64,000 bases of DNA, taken from contig CP130741.1 in assembly GCA_030586155.1 (NCBI GenBank), positions 1,668,680 through 1,732,679 of the forward strand, written 5' to 3'. The notes below the pieces were generated by a model. It was given only the letters and a program-made list of their open reading frames with translations. It made no database searches and was not told the DNA's origin. Shown here one piece after another: positions 1,075 through 61,870 of this stretch (positions are counted from its first letter, which is position 1; each line of letters begins with the position of its first letter). The position numbers and the translations under genes were made by a program. This DNA comes from Eubacteriaceae bacterium ES3 (GTDB lineage Bacteria; Bacillota; Clostridia; Eubacteriales; Eubacteriaceae).

Positions 1075-4000
1075 TTATTCTTCGCGAATTCCAATTGAAT
1101 AGATACCCCGATAAATATTACCTAGATTTCCATCAATTGAAATAGGTTCACAGGAACGGAAAACAAAGTCGTTAATTCGACACACATTATTTTGGTCATC
1201 TACGATAAGTCCACGACATTGAACAATACATACTTTGCCGATACTAACGGCTGTTACAGCTGCATGAGATGTTACCCCTCCTTTAGCTGTAATTAACCCA
1301 TCACAGGAAAAGATAAGCGGAATATCGTCTGGAACGGTGTCTGGTCTGATCAATATTACTGGCCTGTTACTTTTAAATGATCTGATTCTATTTATATCAT
1401 CAAGATCAAAAGCCAGATATCCGGAAAGTACTTCGTGACTCATTCCAATCCCATGCCCTACGAGTTCCATTTCTTGCGGTGATGGAATAAAGTAGCTTAC
1501 GGACTCTTTTTTTCTGATTTTCTGGTTTCTTGTTTGTAGAATATATAAATCTTTGGGATTTTCAGATTCAAAAGTAAATTCAATTTCCTGGTGAACATAA
1601 CCGTACTGATTAATTAAACGGTTTGCATACTCTGCTAGTTGTTTGAAAATTTCGGGGAATCGACTTTCAAGAGAAAAAGTCCCTTCTTTATAATGGTTTC
1701 TTTGTGCTTCACTAATTGGTAATGTACTTACCAGCCCTGAAACAACATCCTCTCCTTGAGAGCATAGCGAAAAATCACCATATAAATTTACACCAGGTTC
1801 ATCGGAAAAGGGACTGCTGGTAAAAACTACACCTGTACCAGAATTAACCGATTGATTACCCATAACCATTTGCTGAACAATTACAGCAGTTCCCCAGTCA
1901 TCTGCAATTTGCAGGTGATTGCGATAGGATTTAGCACTTTCTGAAGACCAGGATTCAAGAACGGCAGAAATTGCTTGTTTGAGTTGAATAAATGGGTCAT
2001 TTTCAAATTCAATATGATAATCGGATAATACCTGTTTATACTCGAATGCAATATTTTTCATTTGTAGTGGTGTAAAATCAATTTTCAATTGGATACCATT
2101 TTTAGTTTTATTTTCTGAAATAATATCATCAAAAATATCACGATTTAAACCAAAGGCCATGCCCCAACTTTGAAGGAAACGTCGATAACAATCCCAGGCA
2201 GTCCATTCAAACCCAGACTTTTGACTAAAAGCTAAAGCTATTTCATCATTCATCCCAACATTTAAAAATGTTTTCATGGCACCTGGTAATGAAATTGAAG
2301 AACCAGAGCGAATTGAGTAGAAAATCGGATTATTTGAACAGCCAAATTTCTTACCAGTAAAGTTTTCAATTCTAGTTAAATAATATGATAGTTGTGCATT
2401 AAAATCCTCCTGAATGATAGGATGTTTATTGATAATATCTTTGTGTCTGAAAACTTCTGTTGTCAAAACAAAACCAGCAGGCACATTAAATTTATATGAA
2501 ATCAGTTTTTTAAGAAAAAAAGCTTTTGCGCCAAGGAAAACAGGATTATCAATGTTATCTGTTTTCTCAGTTAATAAATCGAAAGAGATATCAGGATCAT
2601 ATGTCAACATACTTTTCAGGCTTTGTTCAGAATAATTTAATACTAAATGTCTTAAACTACTAATAATATCAGTTATAAAATTATCCAGGTCCTGAATCAA
2701 GAAGGCAGTTGCCAGGTTATCCCTTAAAAATCTCTCCGATTGCATATGCTTGAATCCCTTTGTTTCCGCATCTAAGTTTTCACTAATTTGAGGTATTATC
2801 ACATTAAGCGGTTTTTTGAATAAATCATAAAAGTATTCTTGAATAATTTGACGAATATCATTCGCCATGAACGAAAATAAGTTAATATACTGTTCAATCG
2901 AAAAACTTGGTGAAACAAGTCCGTATTTTAACATATCTAAATGTGAATTAAATCCTTGATTGACAATCCCATCAAGTTCAAGCCCCTCCTGAAAAAGAAG
3001 CAAAATCTGATGTATATTACGGAATGTTTTCACAGTAACATATTCAGCTTTAAATGGTTGGGTAATTTTTCGCATAAGTTTAGATACAAATTTTTCTAGA
3101 CGATATGTTAGTCCTAATGCGTCAAACTTTGCTTCGACGTACTCACCATACATTGAAGGGATATCTGCGGCTATATGACGTTTGTAGTAGATATTTTCAT
3201 TCGCTTCACTAGCTTTTTTCTCGGTTATGACAGTTTTTAAACGATGCATAATTTGATAAATAGCTTTTATAGAGCCATAATTGTCATTATCATTAAAACA
3301 TTTTTTTAACAGGTCGCGTTCTTTTACGAGATTTAAGTTATATGGATGAAGTATTTTGAAGACATCATCAGCTTCTAAAGAATATTTTTCGAGTAAATAA
3401 AAATACACATTAAATATCAGAAAAACTCGGCGATAATCCATATTTTGATCTGCTTCAAACTTGTCTGAGTTAGCAATCAAATACTCAATATTTTTAGTCA
3501 ATACTTGATTGGGATTTAAGGATAATCTTAAACATATTTTTTTTATTGCATCATGGACGCCTTTATACCATACTCCATCATTATCAAGGTTTTTATAAAT
3601 GTCCTTTGGTATTATACTTTTTAGTGGTTCTCTATTACCATCATACCAGTAATTAATTATTCTTTTCGTCAATTCTATATGCGTATTATTACTTTCAATA
3701 TGAATTTGTTTTCTTAAAAAATGTATTAGCCGGTCCTTTCGTCGTGATAACTCATCGATTTCTGTTGTTGCATCTCTTAATTCACCTTCGGCTCCGATTT
3801 CACGAAAATAAACTGGGAATATTCTTGCCAACTGTTTAATATCTCGATAAACTGGTTCAATATTGACATTTAAGAGCTTTGTAACATCTCTTTGAAAGAG
3901 GTCAGTATCGGATATAAATATTCCTCCTAATTTTAAATTAACGATCAATGCAGCTAGCAGTTCTCGCATAACTTTTGGGTCTTGTTCAATCAGTTCCATC

Positions 4001-5154
4001 CATATACGAATATTTTTAACATGGTTAAAATGTCCTAAAATTTGCCAATCTTCATTTAGAACAAGCCTTCCAGGGTATACGAAGCCTAGTTTAATTAATG
4101 ATTCCACAAAATAATTGATACTCAGGGAATCTTTTGTTTTAATAATTTCGGTCCCAAGGGTCTTAATACAGTCGAGAACCATATCACCATGCATTTCGAT
4201 GAGTGCGTTAAATTCACAAAATAGGGTATCCAAAAATGAAAATTCATCAATCGTTTCAGGTTCGTCAAATATATTTCGTAGATTGCGATTCATATCATAG
4301 ATTAGGTGATCCTTAAAGGGAATCATTCCGGGCAAGTGCAATAGATATATTAAATAATAAATGCTTTCATGATGAGATTCAAATTTATTGCTAAATCCTC
4401 TGAAATGGTTTGCTATATCATTGTAGTACCACTGAGACTTGAGCTTGGAAAAGGTGTTTGCATCACGACATTTTTGTTTAAGATGATTAAAAAAAGGCTT
4501 TCCAATTTCCCTAATTTTATTCTTATCGACATGGATAAATAAGTCCTTTTTTGTTTCAAACCATTGTTCGGCTTTGGTTGATTCTTCCCAGAAATTTATA
4601 CAACGCAATAGGATATCTTTCATAATCTGAACGATTTGGTTTGAGAATTCTTGAAAGCTACTAACTTTTTCGAAACTTATGCTTAATAAACCAGAGTTTT
4701 TAAGATATATGATTTGATAATCACTTAGATTATTTTCGAAAAGAATAATTAGTTCATTAATCGCTGCTAGCGGAACTTTCTTAAAGCCCGCAAGACGATC
4801 AATAAATCGAATATGGATTTGTATCAAATGCTCAAGTTGCTGGTCATTAAGTTTTAAACTGTAAACCTGGTTTATTATTTTAACCATAAATGTGTAGGCT
4901 TGTTCAGATTCTTCCATTTTTTCATATATCCAGCTATCATCTAAACAAATAATTTGTAATGTATTAATAACATAATTTTTATCACAATAACTGTGGTTCA
5001 ATTCAATGAGAAATTCATGGATACGATTGTAAATTCCAATATATTCTTTTGATAATTCTCCAAACCATTGTTGCCTTTCGGGAATAATAATATTTGTATC
5101 TCTAGTTTGGGACAGGTTAGCGCTTAATGCTTTAGATGAAAATTTTTTGTCCAT
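1075..5154 (-). CDS. Large dikinase-like protein (PPDK_N ATP-grasp plus phosphohistidine domain, no PEP barrel)
   Basis: A 1359-residue protein. Residues 1 to about 870 resemble nothing I recognise and look mostly helical. From about 880 it has the pyruvate phosphate dikinase/PEP synthase nucleotide-binding domain, including a YSIRSGS-type motif near 946 that ends in PGAM. A C-terminal swivelling domain has GGVTSHAAV at 1292-1300, with the phosphorylatable His at 1297. The protein ends about 60 residues after this motif, so the PEP/pyruvate TIM barrel of true PPDK and PpsA is missing. That layout recalls glucan water dikinases and rifampicin phosphotransferase, where ATP's phosphate passes through the histidine to another acceptor. 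The acceptor is unknown. IS110 copy 1 is inserted in its ribosome-binding site, leaving GAGGAG 7 bases before the ATG and separating the gene from its original upstream region. Confidence 0.75.
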   Translation of the reverse strand: MDKKFSSKALSANLSQTRDTNIIIPERQQWFGELSKEYIGIYNRIHEFLIELNHSYCDKNYVINTLQIICLDDSWIYEKMEESEQAYTFMVKIINQVYSLKLNDQQLEHLIQIHIRFIDRLAGFKKVPLAAINELIILFENNLSDYQIIYLKNSGLLSISFEKVSSFQEFSNQIVQIMKDILLRCINFWEESTKAEQWFETKKDLFIHVDKNKIREIGKPFFNHLKQKCRDANTFSKLKSQWYYNDIANHFRGFSNKFESHHESIYYLIYLLHLPGMIPFKDHLIYDMNRNLRNIFDEPETIDEFSFLDTLFCEFNALIEMHGDMVLDCIKTLGTEIIKTKDSLSINYFVESLIKLGFVYPGRLVLNEDWQILGHFNHVKNIRIWMELIEQDPKVMRELLAALIVNLKLGGIFISDTDLFQRDVTKLLNVNIEPVYRDIKQLARIFPVYFREIGAEGELRDATTEIDELSRRKDRLIHFLRKQIHIESNNTHIELTKRIINYWYDGNREPLKSIIPKDIYKNLDNDGVWYKGVHDAIKKICLRLSLNPNQVLTKNIEYLIANSDKFEADQNMDYRRVFLIFNVYFYLLEKYSLEADDVFKILHPYNLNLVKERDLLKKCFNDNDNYGSIKAIYQIMHRLKTVITEKKASEANENIYYKRHIAADIPSMYGEYVEAKFDALGLTYRLEKFVSKLMRKITQPFKAEYVTVKTFRNIHQILLLFQEGLELDGIVNQGFNSHLDMLKYGLVSPSFSIEQYINLFSFMANDIRQIIQEYFYDLFKKPLNVIIPQISENLDAETKGFKHMQSERFLRDNLATAFLIQDLDNFITDIISSLRHLVLNYSEQSLKSMLTYDPDISFDLLTEKTDNIDNPVFLGAKAFFLKKLISYKFNVPAGFVLTTEVFRHKDIINKHPIIQEDFNAQLSYYLTRIENFTGKKFGCSNNPIFYSIRSGSSISLPGAMKTFLNVGMNDEIALAFSQKSGFEWTAWDCYRRFLQSWGMAFGLNRDIFDDIISENKTKNGIQLKIDFTPLQMKNIAFEYKQVLSDYHIEFENDPFIQLKQAISAVLESWSSESAKSYRNHLQIADDWGTAVIVQQMVMGNQSVNSGTGVVFTSSPFSDEPGVNLYGDFSLCSQGEDVVSGLVSTLPISEAQRNHYKEGTFSLESRFPEIFKQLAEYANRLINQYGYVHQEIEFTFESENPKDLYILQTRNQKIRKKESVSYFIPSPQEMELVGHGIGMSHEVLSGYLAFDLDDINRIRSFKSNRPVILIRPDTVPDDIPLIFSCDGLITAKGGVTSHAAVTAVSIGKVCIVQCRGLIVDDQNNVCRINDFVFRSCEPISIDGNLGNIYRGIYSIGIREE

Positions 5155-5163
5155 AGAAATCTC

Positions 5164-5173
5164 CTCGTATTAT
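5164..5173 (+). promoter_or_regulatory. Left half of the IS110 circle-junction promoter
   Basis: TATTAT at 5168-5173 makes a -10 box only when the element ends are joined. The right end supplies TTGACT at 6733-6738. Thirteen bases to 6751 plus CTCG (5164-5167) give a 17-base spacer. Promoters formed at joined ends are known for circular IS110-family intermediates. Copy 2 has the same halves at 60975-60984 and 59410-59415. Confidence 0.65.
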
Positions 5174-5214
5174 ATAGTAGTAGTGTTTATAGTCCCTCTC
5201 CAAGGACTGTATGC

Positions 5215-5375
5215 TATACTTTTTGGAGATACTGTGGATTGGTTCTCATCTCCTACCACTAGATGGTTTTCGAAAGGCTCCAACCACAGGCTCTTTGTAT
5301 ATTTGTTAATCAGTTAGATACCGCATGACGGTTTATTTAGAACGAGGTTACAATCGCAGGGAGTACCCGTGGGTT
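5215..5375 (+). ncRNA. Predicted IS110 bridge RNA, copy 1
   Basis: The leader upstream of the transposase folds into two looped stems. The first has stem CTGTGGaTTGG (5232-5242) with CCAACCACAG (5280-5289) and an apical hairpin ACCA-CTAGA-TGGT (5255-5267). One side of its internal loop carries TCATCTCCT (5246-5254) and the other CGAAAGG (5271-5277). The second has stem TTGTA (5295-5299) with TACAA (5349-5353) and apical hairpin ACCG-CATGA-CGGT (5320-5332), with AGTTAG (5312-5317) and ACGAG (5342-5346) in the loop strands. The first loop matches the reconstructed target, the second the element's own ends. This is the architecture known for IS621-type bridge RNAs. The outer limits are approximate. 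Confidence 0.7.
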
Positions 5376-5410
5376 CCAAACAGTATTAAATTTATTCAAG
5401 GAGAACTGTT

Positions 5411-6586
5411 ATGATTTATGCAGGAATTGATGTTGCTAAAGATAAGCATGATTGCTTTATTACTAACTCAGATGGAGAGATACTCTTTAAAGCCTTTACC
5501 ATTATGAACAACCGTGATGGTTTTGATGATTTTTTTCAGAAGATTTCCTCTGTTGCAGAAGATTTAACTAAAGTAAAAGTAGGGCTGGAAGCCACAGGAC
5601 ATTACAGTTACAATCTTCTCGGTTATCTCGTTGATAAAGGTCTCGCCACCTATGTTATCAATCCGTTACATACCAATCTGTACAGAAAAAGTCTAAGCCT
5701 TAGACAGACGAAAACGGATAAGGTAGATGCCCGAACAATTGCTTCTATGATTATGTCTGATGTGAACTTAAAGTCCTACTCAGACACATCTTACCACAAT
5801 GAAGAATTGAAGTCATTAACCCGCTATCGTTTTGATAAAGTAAAGCAACGTTCGAAACTTAAACAATCTATTTCCAGACTTGTTACAATTCTTTTCCCTG
5901 AATTGGAAAAACTTGTTCCTACTCTTCATTTAACTTCTGTTTATGCATTGCTTTCTGAATTCCCGGGTGCTAGTGCTGTTGCGTCTGCTCACCTTACGCG
6001 GCTTTCCAAACTCATTGAAACAGCCTCTAAAGGTCGATATTCCAAAGATACCGCTGTTCGTTTCAGAGAAGCCGCTAGAACTTCTATTGGCTCAAATATG
6101 CCGGCTAAATCACTGGAACTAAAACACACCATTAAGCTTATTCAGGAACTTGATTGTGAAATTGATGAAATAGAATCTGAAATCAAAATCATAATTGATG
6201 AAATAAATTCTCCCATTCTTAGCATTCCTGGAATCAGTTATCGTATGGGGGCTATGATTATTGCTGAAATCGGTGATTTTAAACGCTTTGATACTCCTGA
6301 CAAAATACTTGCTTATGCTGGTCTGTCGCCATCAACTTACCAATCAGGACAACTTGATGGTGCCTATTCCCATATGGAGAAACGAGGCTCCAGATATCTT
6401 CGCTATGCATTATTTAATGCAACTAAATTTGTTTGTAACTGGGATCCAATATTTGCAGCTTATCTTGCAAAGAAACGTTCTGAAGGAAAACACTACAATG
6501 TCGCAATATCTCACGCGGCCAAAAAGCTTGTAAGAGTCATTTACCAGTTGGAAAGATCTGGGCAAACATACATTAAATCAGCTTAG
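5411..6586 (+). CDS. IS110-family transposase (DEDD/serine recombinase), copy 1
   Basis: A 391-residue protein with the two-part IS110 layout. The N-terminal RuvC-like domain starts with YAGIDVAKDKHDC, carrying the first catalytic Asp. The C-terminal Transposase_20 domain spans roughly 260-350, with the conserved SIPGIS motif and a Ser-rich SPSTYQSG stretch that holds the catalytic serine of the family. It would cut and rejoin DNA under guidance of the bridge RNA encoded just upstream. AAGGAG lies 6 bases before the ATG. The reading frame is intact and the protein is identical to that of copy 2, so the element is probably active or was until recently. In the inserted state it lacks an obvious complete promoter of its own. 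Confidence 0.95.
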   Translation: MIYAGIDVAKDKHDCFITNSDGEILFKAFTIMNNRDGFDDFFQKISSVAEDLTKVKVGLEATGHYSYNLLGYLVDKGLATYVINPLHTNLYRKSLSLRQTKTDKVDARTIASMIMSDVNLKSYSDTSYHNEELKSLTRYRFDKVKQRSKLKQSISRLVTILFPELEKLVPTLHLTSVYALLSEFPGASAVASAHLTRLSKLIETASKGRYSKDTAVRFREAARTSIGSNMPAKSLELKHTIKLIQELDCEIDEIESEIKIIIDEINSPILSIPGISYRMGAMIIAEIGDFKRFDTPDKILAYAGLSPSTYQSGQLDGAYSHMEKRGSRYLRYALFNATKFVCNWDPIFAAYLAKKRSEGKHYNVAISHAAKKLVRVIYQLERSGQTYIKSA

Positions 6587-6612
6587 ATTTTTTTAATAAA
6601 TATCTCTTTTTT

Positions 6613-6637
6613 GAGCACCTGCAAAGATGCTCTTTTT
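6613..6637 (+). terminator. Terminator of the IS110 transposase
   Basis: GAGCACCT-GCAA-AGATGCTC (one mismatch) followed by TTTTTG, 27 bases after the transposase stop. It lies inside the element and is repeated in copy 2. Confidence 0.7.
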
Positions 6638-6840
6638 GTCATGCAGTTTTCAATGTTCAGTTAACTCATTTTCAGTTCTTAACTTATCTGAACTGCATTT
6701 CTGCAATTCATTCAAATAATGTCAATTTAGACTTGACTTTTAATAGTTAGTCTTTCATATAGAATTTTCTGTGAAAAATATTTCCATTTATGACTTATAT
6801 ACCCAGAAAGAGTATTAACATAAAAAATATGATAAAATAT

Positions 6841-6909: not shown

Positions 6910-7061
6910 TGTTTAGTGTAAGCTATAAATACAGAAAGTTGCAAAAGCAAAATCCAGAGTATTGCAAGCTGCAAAATCCAGAATAATGCAAAAATCCATT
7001 GCGGGCAAAACTCAAATCAAATATCCTTGTATCTGACCAAAGAACAAGGAGGAAATGGAGA

Positions 7062-8594
7062 ATGCTCACAATGGATCAAATACATGATATCAGATTTCGG
7101 TTTTATGAGAAAGGGGAAAATATTTCACAAATCGCTGAAGCACTGCACATGGACTGGCGGACTGTCCGCAAATATATTGATCAGACGGATTTCAACGAAC
7201 CGGCACCCAGGCCGGCAGTTGAAAAAAAATTCTGTCCCAAGTTAGAACCTTATAAAGCGATCATCGATGAATGGCTGCTCAATGACAAATCTGCTCCCAG
7301 AAAACAGCGTCATACCGCCAAACGGGTGTTTGAACGTCTGCAGAAAGAAACACCCGGTTTTGACTGTTCCTATCGGACCGTTGCCAGTTATTATGCAGAA
7401 AAACACAAAGAAATTTTTAAACAGAACCCAAAAGCATTTCTGCCACTGGTACATCAACCAGGCGAAGCGCAGGTCGATTTTGGCACTGCTGAATTTTATG
7501 AAAATGGCCGCAAGCTGACCGGAAAATACCTGGAGGTCTCTTTTCCGTACAGCAACAAAGGTTATCTTCAGCTGTTCTACGGCGAAAACATGGAATGCCT
7601 GCTGGAAGGACTTGATGCCATCTTTCGGCATATCGGGTGTGTTCCGGCTGAACTCTGGTTTGACAACACAAAAGTTATTGTTACGGACATTATCCGTGGC
7701 GGTGGGCGTAAACTCACCGAAAAATTCGAGCGTTTCCGGGAACATTACGGTTTCAAGGCAGTCTTCATGAATCCAAACGAAGGCCATGAAAAAGGCAATG
7801 TTGAGAACAAGGTCGGCTATCAGCGCCGTAACTTTCTGGTGCCGGTTCCGCACTTTCTGTCACTGCCGGATTATAATCGTGGTTTGTTTAATCAATGCGA
7901 GGAGGATGCACAGCGGGATCATTACCGGTACGATGAGACGATTGAATCGCGTTTTCAGGCTGATCTGAAGGCATCGCGCGAATTGCCGTCTGTTCCTTTT
8001 AATCTTAATGGGCATAAGACCCTGAAAGCCGACAAATGGGCAAAGGTTTATCTGAATAAAGGCAGGCATGCCTATTCAGTGGCCCCTAAATATGCCCAGT
8101 GTTCGGTTCATCTGGTACTGACGTCAGCTGCTGTTATCATTCAGGATGAAAACTTTAGAGAAATCGTCCGCCATCGACGATTATACGGTGACAGCAAACA
8201 GGAACAGATGGACTGGCTGCCCTATCTGAAGCAGTTATCTCAGCGACCACGAGCGGTCAAATATTCGGGAATTTATGAAATGATGCCCGAAACCATGCGG
8301 TCTTTTTTGGCCTCCTGCTCAGACAGTGAAACCGCTCAGGTCATCAGACTGCTTTCAGAACTGACCAATCGATCCGGTTTTGAGAGCGCTCTGAATACAG
8401 TCGATCATGCCATTGCCTGTCAGGTAAAGGATGCTGACAGTCTTGCAAGTCTCTACCGGAGGCTGTATGCCGATGTTCCTGAACTTCCGGCCATGAATCT
8501 GCAGCCCGGAATTCCTCAAATGCAGCCGCTGATGCCGAATCTGGATGCTTATGACCGGCTACTTAATCAGAAGGAGGTTAGCCCCCATGCTTGA
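7062..8594 (+). CDS. istA: IS21-family transposase IstA
   Basis: A 510-residue DDE transposase. An N-terminal helix-turn-helix (about 15-45) binds the element ends. The catalytic triad lies in the motifs VDFG (first Asp), WFDNTK (second Asp) and GNVENKVG (Glu). I start it at ATG 7062 because AAGGAGG lies 10-16 bases upstream. The longer frame from 6999 has no ribosome-binding site and would add residues absent from the family. Its end overlaps the istB start by 8 bases, so the two are translationally coupled. IstA joins the DNA ends to the target, with IstB choosing and bending the target. Confidence 0.93.
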   Translation: MLTMDQIHDIRFRFYEKGENISQIAEALHMDWRTVRKYIDQTDFNEPAPRPAVEKKFCPKLEPYKAIIDEWLLNDKSAPRKQRHTAKRVFERLQKETPGFDCSYRTVASYYAEKHKEIFKQNPKAFLPLVHQPGEAQVDFGTAEFYENGRKLTGKYLEVSFPYSNKGYLQLFYGENMECLLEGLDAIFRHIGCVPAELWFDNTKVIVTDIIRGGGRKLTEKFERFREHYGFKAVFMNPNEGHEKGNVENKVGYQRRNFLVPVPHFLSLPDYNRGLFNQCEEDAQRDHYRYDETIESRFQADLKASRELPSVPFNLNGHKTLKADKWAKVYLNKGRHAYSVAPKYAQCSVHLVLTSAAVIIQDENFREIVRHRRLYGDSKQEQMDWLPYLKQLSQRPRAVKYSGIYEMMPETMRSFLASCSDSETAQVIRLLSELTNRSGFESALNTVDHAIACQVKDADSLASLYRRLYADVPELPAMNLQPGIPQMQPLMPNLDAYDRLLNQKEVSPHA

Positions 8595-9348
8595 CAATGA
8601 AATCTCTGAATGCTGCCGGAAACTGCGTCTCAGCCGGAACCTGGCCGAATTGGCTCAGACTGCCGAAGGTGACAGTCATCAGGAATATCTGTACCGGATT
8701 CTCAGCGAGGAACTCCAGTATCGGGAGATCTCCCGGACTGAAAAGCTGGTCAACAGTGCCGGATTCTACAGCCGTCAGACTTTTGAAGGCTACCGCTTTG
8801 ACGAAATCACGCTGCCTGCGGATCTGACCCCTGAAAGCCTGAAATCACTTGCTTTTATTAATGACCACAAAAATATCATCATGTACGGCGGTACCGGAAC
8901 CGGTAAAACCATGTTGTCAACCGCCCTTGGTGTGGCAGCCTGCCTTCAGGGTATACCAGTTAAATTTTTTCGAACAGCGGCACTGGTCAATAAGCTTTCT
9001 GAAGCAAAAGCAGCCGGAACATTGACTGCTTTTCTTAAAAAACTGAATAAAGCTGAGTTGCTTATTCTCGATGAATATGGCTATGTGCCGCTGGATCGGA
9101 CGGGCTCCCAGCTGCTGTTTGAGATTATCTCCGACTGTTATCAGAACAGAAGTATTATTCTTAATACCAATCTGGAATTTTCCCGATGGGTCAATGTCCT
9201 TTATGATGAACAGATGACGGCTGCCATGCTGGATCGGTTGCTGCATCACTGTCATCTGATTTTATTCCCGGGTCCCAGTAACCGGATGCGAGAATCCAGC
9301 ATTAATGACTTATATCGATCGATTTCGGAGAATCAGCCGAAAAACTGA
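8587..9348 (+). CDS. istB: IS21-family ATPase helper IstB
   Basis: A 253-residue AAA+ ATPase related to DnaC. Walker A is GGTGTGKT (about residues 100-107) and Walker B is LLILDEYGY. IstB assembles on target DNA and stimulates IstA. I start it at ATG 8587, preceded by AAGGAGG and overlapping the istA stop. The in-frame ATG at 8545 lies inside istA and lacks a ribosome-binding site. It is full length and intact, so the element could still move. Confidence 0.93.
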   Translation: MLDNEISECCRKLRLSRNLAELAQTAEGDSHQEYLYRILSEELQYREISRTEKLVNSAGFYSRQTFEGYRFDEITLPADLTPESLKSLAFINDHKNIIMYGGTGTGKTMLSTALGVAACLQGIPVKFFRTAALVNKLSEAKAAGTLTAFLKKLNKAELLILDEYGYVPLDRTGSQLLFEIISDCYQNRSIILNTNLEFSRWVNVLYDEQMTAAMLDRLLHHCHLILFPGPSNRMRESSINDLYRSISENQPKN

Positions 9349-59380: not shown

Positions 59381-59510
59381 CATTTAGGTTTGAAAGACTA
59401 ACTATTAAAAGTCAAGTCTAAATTGACATTATTTGAATGAATTGCAGAAATGCAGTTCAGATAAGTTAAGAACTGAAAATGAGTTAACTGAACATTGAAA
59501 ACTGCATGAC

Positions 59511-59535
59511 AAAAAGAGCATCTTTGCAGGTGCTC
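59511..59535 (-). terminator. Terminator of the IS110 transposase, copy 2
   Basis: Mirror of 6613-6637: an imperfect GAGCACCT/AGATGCTC stem and TTTTT on the minus strand. Confidence 0.7.
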
Positions 59536-59561
59536 AAAAAAGAGATATTTATTAAAAAAAT

Positions 59562-60737
59562 CTAAGCTGATTTAATGTATGTTTGCCCAGATCTTTCCAA
59601 CTGGTAAATGACTCTTACAAGCTTTTTGGCCGCGTGAGATATTGCGACATTGTAGTGTTTTCCTTCAGAACGTTTCTTTGCAAGATAAGCTGCAAATATT
59701 GGATCCCAGTTACAAACAAATTTAGTTGCATTAAATAATGCATAGCGAAGATATCTGGAGCCTCGTTTCTCCATATGGGAATAGGCACCATCAAGTTGTC
59801 CTGATTGGTAAGTTGATGGCGACAGACCAGCATAAGCAAGTATTTTGTCAGGAGTATCAAAGCGTTTAAAATCACCGATTTCAGCAATAATCATAGCCCC
59901 CATACGATAACTGATTCCAGGAATGCTAAGAATGGGAGAATTTATTTCATCAATTATGATTTTGATTTCAGATTCTATTTCATCAATTTCACAATCAAGT
60001 TCCTGAATAAGCTTAATGGTGTGTTTTAGTTCCAGTGATTTAGCCGGCATATTTGAGCCAATAGAAGTTCTAGCGGCTTCTCTGAAACGAACAGCGGTAT
60101 CTTTGGAATATCGACCTTTAGAGGCTGTTTCAATGAGTTTGGAAAGCCGCGTAAGGTGAGCAGACGCAACAGCACTAGCACCCGGGAATTCAGAAAGCAA
60201 TGCATAAACAGAAGTTAAATGAAGAGTAGGAACAAGTTTTTCCAATTCAGGGAAAAGAATTGTAACAAGTCTGGAAATAGATTGTTTAAGTTTCGAACGT
60301 TGCTTTACTTTATCAAAACGATAGCGGGTTAATGACTTCAATTCTTCATTGTGGTAAGATGTGTCTGAGTAGGACTTTAAGTTCACATCAGACATAATCA
60401 TAGAAGCAATTGTTCGGGCATCTACCTTATCCGTTTTCGTCTGTCTAAGGCTTAGACTTTTTCTGTACAGATTGGTATGTAACGGATTGATAACATAGGT
60501 GGCGAGACCTTTATCAACGAGATAACCGAGAAGATTGTAACTGTAATGTCCTGTGGCTTCCAGCCCTACTTTTACTTTAGTTAAATCTTCTGCAACAGAG
60601 GAAATCTTCTGAAAAAAATCATCAAAACCATCACGGTTGTTCATAATGGTAAAGGCTTTAAAGAGTATCTCTCCATCTGAGTTAGTAATAAAGCAATCAT
60701 GCTTATCTTTAGCAACATCAATTCCTGCATAAATCAT
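59562..60737 (-). CDS. IS110-family transposase, copy 2
   Basis: 391 residues, identical in sequence to the protein at 5411-6586, with the same YAGIDVAKDKHDC and SPSTYQSG motifs. Full length with its own AAGGAG. Identity of both copies means a recent transposition or homogenisation. Confidence 0.95.
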   Translation of the reverse strand: MIYAGIDVAKDKHDCFITNSDGEILFKAFTIMNNRDGFDDFFQKISSVAEDLTKVKVGLEATGHYSYNLLGYLVDKGLATYVINPLHTNLYRKSLSLRQTKTDKVDARTIASMIMSDVNLKSYSDTSYHNEELKSLTRYRFDKVKQRSKLKQSISRLVTILFPELEKLVPTLHLTSVYALLSEFPGASAVASAHLTRLSKLIETASKGRYSKDTAVRFREAARTSIGSNMPAKSLELKHTIKLIQELDCEIDEIESEIKIIIDEINSPILSIPGISYRMGAMIIAEIGDFKRFDTPDKILAYAGLSPSTYQSGQLDGAYSHMEKRGSRYLRYALFNATKFVCNWDPIFAAYLAKKRSEGKHYNVAISHAAKKLVRVIYQLERSGQTYIKSA

Positions 60738-60772
60738 AACAGTTCTCCTTGAATAAATTTAATACTGTTTGG

Positions 60773-60933
60773 AACCCACGGGTACTCCCTGCGATTGTAA
60801 CCTCGTTCTAAATAAACCGTCATGCGGTATCTAACTGATTAACAAATATACAAAGAGCCTGTGGTTGGAGCCTTTCGAAAACCATCTAGTGGTAGGAGAT
60901 GAGAACCAATCCACAGTATCTCCAAAAAGTATA
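60773..60933 (-). ncRNA. Predicted IS110 bridge RNA, copy 2
   Basis: Same sequence as 5215-5375. The target loop strands lie at 60894-60902 (TCATCTCCT on the minus strand) and 60871-60877 (CGAAAGG). The first matches this copy's left target TCATTTCCT at 8 of 9 positions. Confidence 0.7.
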
Positions 60934-60991
60934 GCATACAGTCCTTGGAGAGGGACTATAAACACTACTACTATATAATACGAGGAAATGA

Positions 60992-61870
60992 ATGACTAGA
61001 GATTATTTAATTAAAGGTACTGCCGCCCAAAATCAGATACGAATTTTGGGTGCCGTAACAACAAACCTTGTTCAAAAATCCATCGTTCTTCATCAAACAT
61101 CCCCTACAGTATCAGTTGCAATGGGACGATTGCTGACTGCAGGCACTTTAATGGGAGCAATGATGAAGAGTGAAGATGAATTATTGACATTGAAAGTTCT
61201 TGGTGAAGGCGAACTTCAGGGAATGCTTGTTACTGCTGACTCAAAAGGTTTTGTTAAGGGTTACCCATATGTTAAGATCCTAAAACCGGATCCTTTGGAA
61301 GCTATCAGCGTTTCTTCCGCAATTGGAAATGGATCTTTGACTGTAATTAAAGATATAGGTTTAAAAGAGCCCTATATCGGATATTCCCCTTTAGTAACGG
61401 GTGAAATAGCTGAAGACTTAACCTATTATTATGCTAAATCGGAGCAAATACCGACCTCAGTTTCACTGGGAGTACTGATGGATTCTCAAACAACTGTAAA
61501 ACAGGCTGGTGGCTTTATTATCCAATTAATGCCAGATACTAATGATGACGTTATTTCTGAGTTGGAAAAAGCATTATCACAAATGCCTTCTATGACTAAA
61601 CTATTAGAGGCTGGTCAAACGCCCGAAGAGATTTTCACTGACCTCTTTGCTAATCTTGGTTTTAAAGTAAATGAAACTCAGGAAATTGCCTATCATTGCA
61701 ATTGCTCGCTTGATAAAGTGACGAAAGCACTTATTTCTTTAGGGTCTGAAGAAATTGAAAAAATGATTTTAGAGGATAAACCGATCGAGATGCACTGTGA
61801 TTTTTGTGAAACAAATTATCCTTTTACAACAAACCAACTTAAAACAATTTTACAGGAAATAGAAAATTAA
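60992..61870 (+). CDS. hslO: Redox-regulated chaperone Hsp33
   Basis: 292 residues. Oxidation activates this holdase chaperone against protein aggregation. The zinc-binding redox switch is CNC (CNCSLDKV) and CDFC near the C-terminus. The start is ATG 60992. The IS110 end supplies CGAGGA directly upstream, replacing part of the ancestral AAAGGA. An ATG at 60988 ends after three codons. It now has no native upstream promoter unless rlmH transcripts read through the element. Confidence 0.93.
   Translation: MTRDYLIKGTAAQNQIRILGAVTTNLVQKSIVLHQTSPTVSVAMGRLLTAGTLMGAMMKSEDELLTLKVLGEGELQGMLVTADSKGFVKGYPYVKILKPDPLEAISVSSAIGNGSLTVIKDIGLKEPYIGYSPLVTGEIAEDLTYYYAKSEQIPTSVSLGVLMDSQTTVKQAGGFIIQLMPDTNDDVISELEKALSQMPSMTKLLEAGQTPEEIFTDLFANLGFKVNETQEIAYHCNCSLDKVTKALISLGSEEIEKMILEDKPIEMHCDFCETNYPFTTNQLKTILQEIEN

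What the first reader, a model, noticed from the sequence alone, without database searches (positions are those of the whole stretch)
5162..6757. IS110 element targets the Shine-Dalgarno octamer TCCTTTCA at both insertion sites
With CT as the junction dinucleotide, deleting either copy leaves the same sequence. Copy 1 gives ATCTC-CT-TTCATA and copy 2 gives ATTTC-CT-TTCAAA. The shared TCCTTTCA is the complement of TGAAAGGA, and in each case it is the ribosome-binding site of the gene at the left flank (dikinase-like at 5154, hslO at 60992). Two independent insertions with the same relation to a start codon point to a guide aimed at translation-initiation sites, an unusual niche because the motif is abundant and usually upstream of genes.
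Basis: partly seen in the sequence, partly recalled or inferred. Interest (0 to 1): 0.85.

Follow-up and report, generated by a model that had tools for sequence, protein, structure and literature searches.

The report
Jumping gene guided to ribosome-binding sites
This bacterial jumping gene carries a short guide RNA whose target-reading part copies the ribosome's own mRNA-recognition sequence, so it inserts next to the start codons of genes; the same habit was described for the mycobacterial element IS900 in 1997, but here the guide behind it can be read off the DNA and followed across a whole clade.

Summary
The element is 1588 bp (5166-6753 +; identical copy 59395-60982 -), is in the IS110 family, and duplicates only the core CT. 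The genome holds six copies (one frameshifted, one interrupted). All six lie in the Shine-Dalgarno (SD) box of an ORF on the left flank, start codon 9-15 nt from the core. A sister species has three of the sites intact. The exact octamer is wrong: the target is about TCTCCT|TTC; TCCTTTCA occurs at 3 of 6 sites.

The cause is visible. The 5' non-coding end encodes a bridge RNA with conserved folds. Its target loop carries TCATCTCCT and, reverse-complemented, CCTTTC, which together resemble the 16S anti-SD tail. Over 100 sites of relatives, both guide halves covary with the flanks (0 of 20,000 permutations as good); donor guides covary too. All 82 guide pairs keep CCT (=AGG) in the left guide, while right guides diverge.

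Specificity is for sequence, not for translation starts: 19 of 27 empty TCTCCTTTC sites in the genome are also SD boxes. RBS targeting by an IS110-family element is already published (IS900, motif CATGN6TCTCCTT), so this is a new member of a known kind. The additions are the mechanism read from sequence and its clade-wide persistence.

The parts
5166..6753 (+). IS110-group insertion sequence, copy 1, 1588 bp (CGTATT...GTTAGTCT), includes one copy of the core CT; the other core CT is 5164-5165
   Evidence: exact repeat ends; empty sites in sister species
59395..60982 (-). copy 2 of the same element, 100% identical
5411..6586 (+). IS110 transposase (391 aa): DEDD_Tnp_IS110 + Transposase_20; D7/E60/D103/D106 and S312 align with IS621
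59562..60737 (-). transposase of copy 2
5180..5385 (+). predicted bridge RNA (ends approximate): 5' stem-loop, target-binding loop, donor-binding loop
   Evidence: MFE -59.1, z -2.0; 42 relatives, 56 consensus pairs, 17 with compensatory changes, 95% standard pairs
5231..5290 (+). target-binding loop: stem 5231-5242/5280-5290, apical hairpin 5255-5267
5246..5254 (+). left target guide TCATCTCCT (same letters as the target top strand; anti-SD-like)
   Evidence: covaries with left flanks over 90 sites
5272..5277 (+). right target guide GAAAGG (reverse complement CCTTTC = -1, core, +1 to +3 of the target)
   Evidence: covaries with right flanks over 87 sites
5291..5363 (+). donor-binding loop; left guide about 5309-5319 (AGTTAG matches the right end), right guide AACGAGG 5341-5347 (reverse complement CCTCGTT matches the left end CT-CGT)
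   Evidence: left ends CTCGT, CTTGT, CTACT, CTGCT go with right guides CGAG, CAAG, GTAG, GCAG (one exception, L083)
6733..6738 (+). -35-like TTGACT in the right end; in the excised circle it stands 17 nt from TATTAT at 5168-5173 (junction promoter)
   Evidence: sequence; conserved in relatives; activity not tested
5168..5173 (+). -10-like TATTAT in the left end, completed by circle formation
   Evidence: sequence
5158..5165 (-). SD half left attached to target gene 1 (AGGAGATT on the minus strand) with core CT 5164-5165
1075..5154 (-). target gene of copy 1: PPDK-like (PPDK_N + PEP-utilizers mobile domain), start codon 5152-5154
60992..61870 (+). target gene of copy 2: hslO (HSP33)

Best explanation
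This is an IS110-group insertion sequence that probably moves as a circle and is placed by a bridge RNA encoded in its 5' non-coding end. The left target guide (TCATCTCCT) pairs with the bottom strand and the right target guide (GAAAGG) with the top strand of a site reading about TCTCCT|TTC around a CT core. That sequence is the complement of an SD box (GAAAGGAGA) and resembles the 16S anti-SD tail (TCACCTCCTTTC), so insertions land in ribosome-binding sites, with the tnp strand reading away from the target gene. Because the left half of the target stays next to the gene, the gene keeps AGGA(G), spacer and start codon but is cut off from upstream DNA. Shown from sequence: boundaries, six copies, empty sites for three, RNA fold covariation, guide-target and guide-donor covariation. 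Inferred: RNA expression, circle formation, chemistry, and that the RBS niche is kept by selection.
For: Family: PF01548 and PF02371; IS621 and ISCro4 are the only solved relatives, with DEDD residues and the serine aligned to IS621. Six of six genomic copies in SD boxes. Empty sites in sister species G012 for three copies, 2-bp overlap only. Guide-target match in 100 non-redundant sites with 49 distinct left guides and 36 distinct right guides: left -2 to -7 has 400 matches against 234 +/- 10 permuted; right +1 to +4 has 300 against 170 +/- 7.6; 0 of 20,000 permutations reach either. Forty sites whose right guide is not TTC match 3.4 of 4 bases, against 1.45 mispaired. Donor guides follow the left-end sequence. 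Consensus RNA with compensatory pairs. All 82 distinct guide pairs keep CCT in the left guide; when the base next to the core changes (CCTCACT, CCTTCT), an upstream CCT is present. Relatives at 49-60% identity also sit at SD boxes (L145, L148, L149, L152, L151, L155).
Against: No RNA or protein data. The interrupted copy (L006/L007) has CTC instead of TTC on the right, so the right guide tolerates mismatch. About a third of family sites show no in-register ORF of 50 codons or more, and some are clearly not SD boxes. Five 16S-like 3' ends (TCACCTCCTTTC), which match the guide as well as typical real sites do, are intact in this genome; the model needs purging or inaccessibility to explain that.
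Confidence: 0.93

Rival explanations
1. The transposase recognises translation-initiation regions as such (AT-rich spacer, start codon, open DNA at active genes) and the RNA matters little.
For: 6/6 copies lie at starts; offsets from core to start cluster at 11-13 nt.
Against: Guide letters covary with the flanks over many relatives; unoccupied TCTCCTTTC sites are SD boxes 70% of the time anyway; CAT is not part of the guide and its distance varies from 9 to 15 nt; one lineage (G190) with a changed guide sits in a repeat instead.
Confidence: 0.04
2. The flanking CCT belongs to the element or is fixed by the recombinase, and the SD association is a by-product plus survivor bias: insertions in coding sequence are lost, those in RBS persist.
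For: CCT before the element is nearly constant; survivorship must act on any set of observed insertions.
Against: Sister species carry the CCT (AGG) without the element; the position next to the core changes to A or T in some relatives together with the guide, and the guide keeps another CCT; the guide itself has the SD complement, which survivor bias on insertions does not create.
Confidence: 0.05
3. The guide works as described, but is SD-like only because the founding element happened to have it; the niche is inherited, not selected.
For: All relatives share ancestry, so 82 guides are not 82 independent choices; one lineage (G190) did leave the niche.
Against: Right guides have diverged widely (31 distinct tetramers at +1 to +4) while all left guides keep CCT; SD placement persists at 49% protein identity.
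Confidence: 0.3

Closest known systems
IS900 (IS110 family, Mycobacterium avium subsp. paratuberculosis)
   Same: Target motif CATGNNNNNNTCTCCTT (PMC8141618): reversed start codon, spacer, SD complement. Doran et al. 1997, cited there, reports by its title that IS900 targets translation initiation signals.
   Different: IS900 is from actinobacteria; its motif includes CATG at fixed distance, whereas here the distance varies and CAT is not in the guide. The passages read here do not mention a guide RNA for IS900. Sequence relation to this element was not tested (IS900 not on hand).
IS621 / bridge-RNA IS110 group
   Same: DEDD + serine recombinase, upstream non-coding RNA with target and donor loops, CT core, split left and right guides, junction promoter (PMC11208160).
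   Different: IS621 targets REP elements; this clade targets SD boxes. The transposase is 391 aa and only distantly similar (E 4e-20).
IS110/IS1111 seekRNA elements (ISEc11, ISEc21, ISPa11)
   Same: RNA-guided target choice and natural reprogramming between relatives (PMC11187229).
   Different: IS1111 members have the RNA downstream of tnp and subterminal inverted repeats; here it is upstream. The targets named in the passages read (for example REP sequences for ISPa11) are not SD boxes.

Membership tests
IS110 family | Transposase with N-terminal DEDD (PF01548) and C-terminal Transposase_20 (PF02371) domains | tested here: met
   148.8 and 80.3 bits, above both cut-offs
IS110 family | Catalytic D, E, D, D and serine | tested here: met
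   D7, E60, D103, D106 and S312 align with IS621
IS110 family | No terminal inverted repeats; no target duplication beyond the core | tested here: met
   2-bp CT overlap only; no TIR seen by eye at the ends
IS110 group with bridge RNA | Structured RNA in the longer upstream end, with target and donor loops | tested here: met
   245 nt upstream against 167 nt downstream
IS110 group with bridge RNA | Split guides match target and donor DNA and covary with them | tested here: met
IS110 group with bridge RNA | Junction promoter in the circle drives the RNA; the RNA is expressed and bound | not testable with these tools
   Sequence TTGACT-17-TATTAT is present; no expression data
IS1111 group | Guide RNA encoded downstream of tnp | tested here: not met
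   Guide region lies upstream of tnp
IS900-like RBS-targeting | Insertion between start codon and upstream half of the SD box | tested here: met
   6/6 own copies; 56 of 85-86 family sites
IS900-like RBS-targeting | Common ancestry with IS900 within IS110 | not tested

The most novel reading that the evidence does not exclude
A clade of IS110 elements, down to 49% identity in this sample, keeps by selection a bridge-RNA guide that imitates the 16S anti-SD. The left guide half always carries the SD complement, so the hit gene keeps its ribosome-binding site after insertion, while the right half drifts freely and retunes which genes are hit. The SD box would serve as a universal address that works in any host.
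Probability: 0.5. Interest if true: 0.62.

Novelty: new member of a known kind. Interest (0 to 1): 0.48.

Why it matters
It explains by sequence alone how an IS110 element comes to target ribosome-binding sites, a habit reported for IS900 long before guide RNAs were known in this family. A guide resembling the anti-SD gives a mobile element target sites in most bacterial genomes. The clade supplies many natural guide-target-donor triples for testing pairing rules of bridge RNAs, including an apparent natural retargeting to a repeat.

Tried and rejected
Own-genome start-site sensing beyond motif: rejected, 19/27 unoccupied motif sites are SD boxes. Avoidance of 16S by guide choice (anti-SD left guides paired with non-TTC right guides): suggestive direction, not significant (Fisher p 0.15). 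Avoidance of the element's own tnp RBS by its guide: no signal. Outward promoter driving the target gene: none found on the minus strand of the left end; TATAATACG|AGGAG would start transcription inside the SD. Rfam: no credible match. Same genus and family search for further copies: only the window's own genome has it, so relatives came from other families.

Full report
What is there. The window holds two identical 1588-bp copies of an IS110-family element, 5166-6753 (+) and 59395-60982 (-). Each encodes a 391-aa transposase with the DEDD_Tnp_IS110 and Transposase_20 domains. The only solved relatives found are IS621 and ISCro4, and the catalytic D/E/D/D and serine positions align with IS621. 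The genome carries six copies in all: four intact, one with a 1-bp frameshift (L005), and one interrupted by an 877-bp insertion (L006/L007). None of 18 other genomes of the genus and none of 21 others of the family has it. The nearest relative found is in Mobilisporobacter (92% protein identity), so it was probably acquired horizontally.

Insertion sites. All six reconstructed empty sites have the core CT and lie in the SD box of an ORF on the left flank; the start codon is 9-15 nt from the core. In a sister species (G012) three of the sites are present without the element and read as plain SD boxes: TTGAAAGGAATTTAATG (hslO), AACGAAAGGAGTTTTTTATGG and AAAAGGAGGTATTGACCATG. This shows that AGG and its flanks belong to the host and that only two bases are shared. 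The other three sites were not looked for in relatives.

The guide. The 5' non-coding end folds into a 5' stem-loop, a target loop and a donor loop. A consensus over 42 diverse relatives keeps 95% standard pairs and has compensatory changes at 17 of 56 pairs. The target loop has TCATCTCCT on its 5' side and GAAAGG on its 3' side, which is the split-guide layout of IS621. I read the same two stretches in 105 elements. In 100 non-redundant sites the left guide agrees with the left flank from -1 to about -8, and the right guide with the right flank from +1 to about +5. Permuting guides among sites never reached the observed agreement in 20,000 tries. Many right guides are quite different from TTC and still match their own site: CCATTAA/CCATTTT, GTTAGAA/GTTATGC, CGTATGA/CGTATTT, TAATCAA/TAATCTC, ATTCTAA/ATTCTTT. 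The donor side behaves alike: left ends CT-CGT, CT-TGT, CT-ACT and CT-GCT go with donor guides whose reverse complements begin the same way, with one exception (L083). The target prediction is therefore well supported without any experiment; the RNA itself has not been observed.

Why ribosome-binding sites. The target TCTCCT|TTC is the complement of GAAAGGAGA, and the guide differs by one base in nine from the 16S 3' tail TCACCTCCTTTC. A control settles how far this goes: of 27 unoccupied TCTCCTTTC sites in the genome, 19 are themselves SD boxes by the same test. The six occupied sites therefore need no further attraction to start codons. Across the family 56 of 85-86 non-redundant sites have an in-register start with an ORF of at least 50 codons, against 8-12% at random positions and 22% for AGGAG words in the same loci. 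The opposite side of the same sites scores 5 of 85. Core-to-start distances peak at 11-13 nt.

Persistence of the niche. All 82 distinct guide pairs keep CCT in the left guide, while +1 to +4 of the right guide takes 31 different forms. In lineages where the base next to the core is A, G or T (guides ending CCTCACT, CCTCGCT, CCTTCT, CCTCTCT) the guide still carries a CCT a few bases further left, and most of the sites read AGTGAGG, AGAAGG or AGAGAGG, several of them just before a start codon. Relatives at 49-60% identity also sit at SD boxes. This looks like a kept niche, but shared ancestry could account for part of it and no rate test was done. Since the left half of the target stays attached to the gene, the gene keeps its SD and start codon, though it is separated from upstream DNA by 1.6 kb. 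Whether that lessens the harm was not tested.

An apparent exception. In one genome (G190: L137, L150, L153) the left guide reads TTACACCCACCT, and the three copies sit in a palindromic repeat (CATCACACCCACCT..AGGTGGGGTCACA). The right guide does not match well there. This looks like a natural move of the guide to a dispersed repeat, the kind of niche IS621 uses.

What is known. IS110-family elements use bridge RNAs (PMC11208160; PMC11187229). IS900, of the same family, has the target motif CATGNNNNNNTCTCCTT, and a 1997 paper cited there states in its title that it targets translation initiation signals (PMC8141618). I found no paper in the held library that ties RBS targeting to the guide RNA, but that library is incomplete. 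The finding is therefore a new member of a known kind with an unusually clear sequence-level explanation.

Noticed in passing
L137, L150, L153 (genome G190): Three copies of a 75%-identical relative sit in a palindromic repeat CATCACACCCACCT..AGGTGGGGTCACA, with a left guide TTACACCCACCT that matches it: probable natural retargeting from SD boxes to a REP-like repeat.
   Followed up: partly
L066, around the left end of the element: One copy is inserted exactly at the left-guide DNA (..GTACATTCCTCCT) of another copy of the same element, as expected because the left guide has the same letters as its target.
   Followed up: partly
G000:C1:41464, 88312, 781506, 800314, 2223874: Five TCACCTCCTTTC sites, probably 16S 3' ends, match the guide as well as real sites (8/9 + 3/4) yet are intact; whether such hits are lethal or inaccessible is open.
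   Followed up: partly
G000:C1:1514977-1517441 (L006/L007): Sixth copy interrupted within its 5' part by an 877-bp insertion that looks like another insertion sequence; not identified further.
   Followed up: no
window 6999-9348: A Mu-type transposase ORF plus a 267-aa ORF, arranged like an IS21 pair, lie directly beside copy 1, so two unrelated insertion sequences adjoin.
   Followed up: no
L009, L013, L016 and others (left end 110-113 nt before the target loop): A subclade carries an extra hairpin (TCATAGTC..GACTATGAT) of about 45 nt between the 5' stem-loop and the target loop of the bridge RNA.
   Followed up: no
L120-L136: Seventeen relatives occur on contigs classed as viral in IMG/VR, so phages or prophages may carry this element between hosts.
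   Followed up: no
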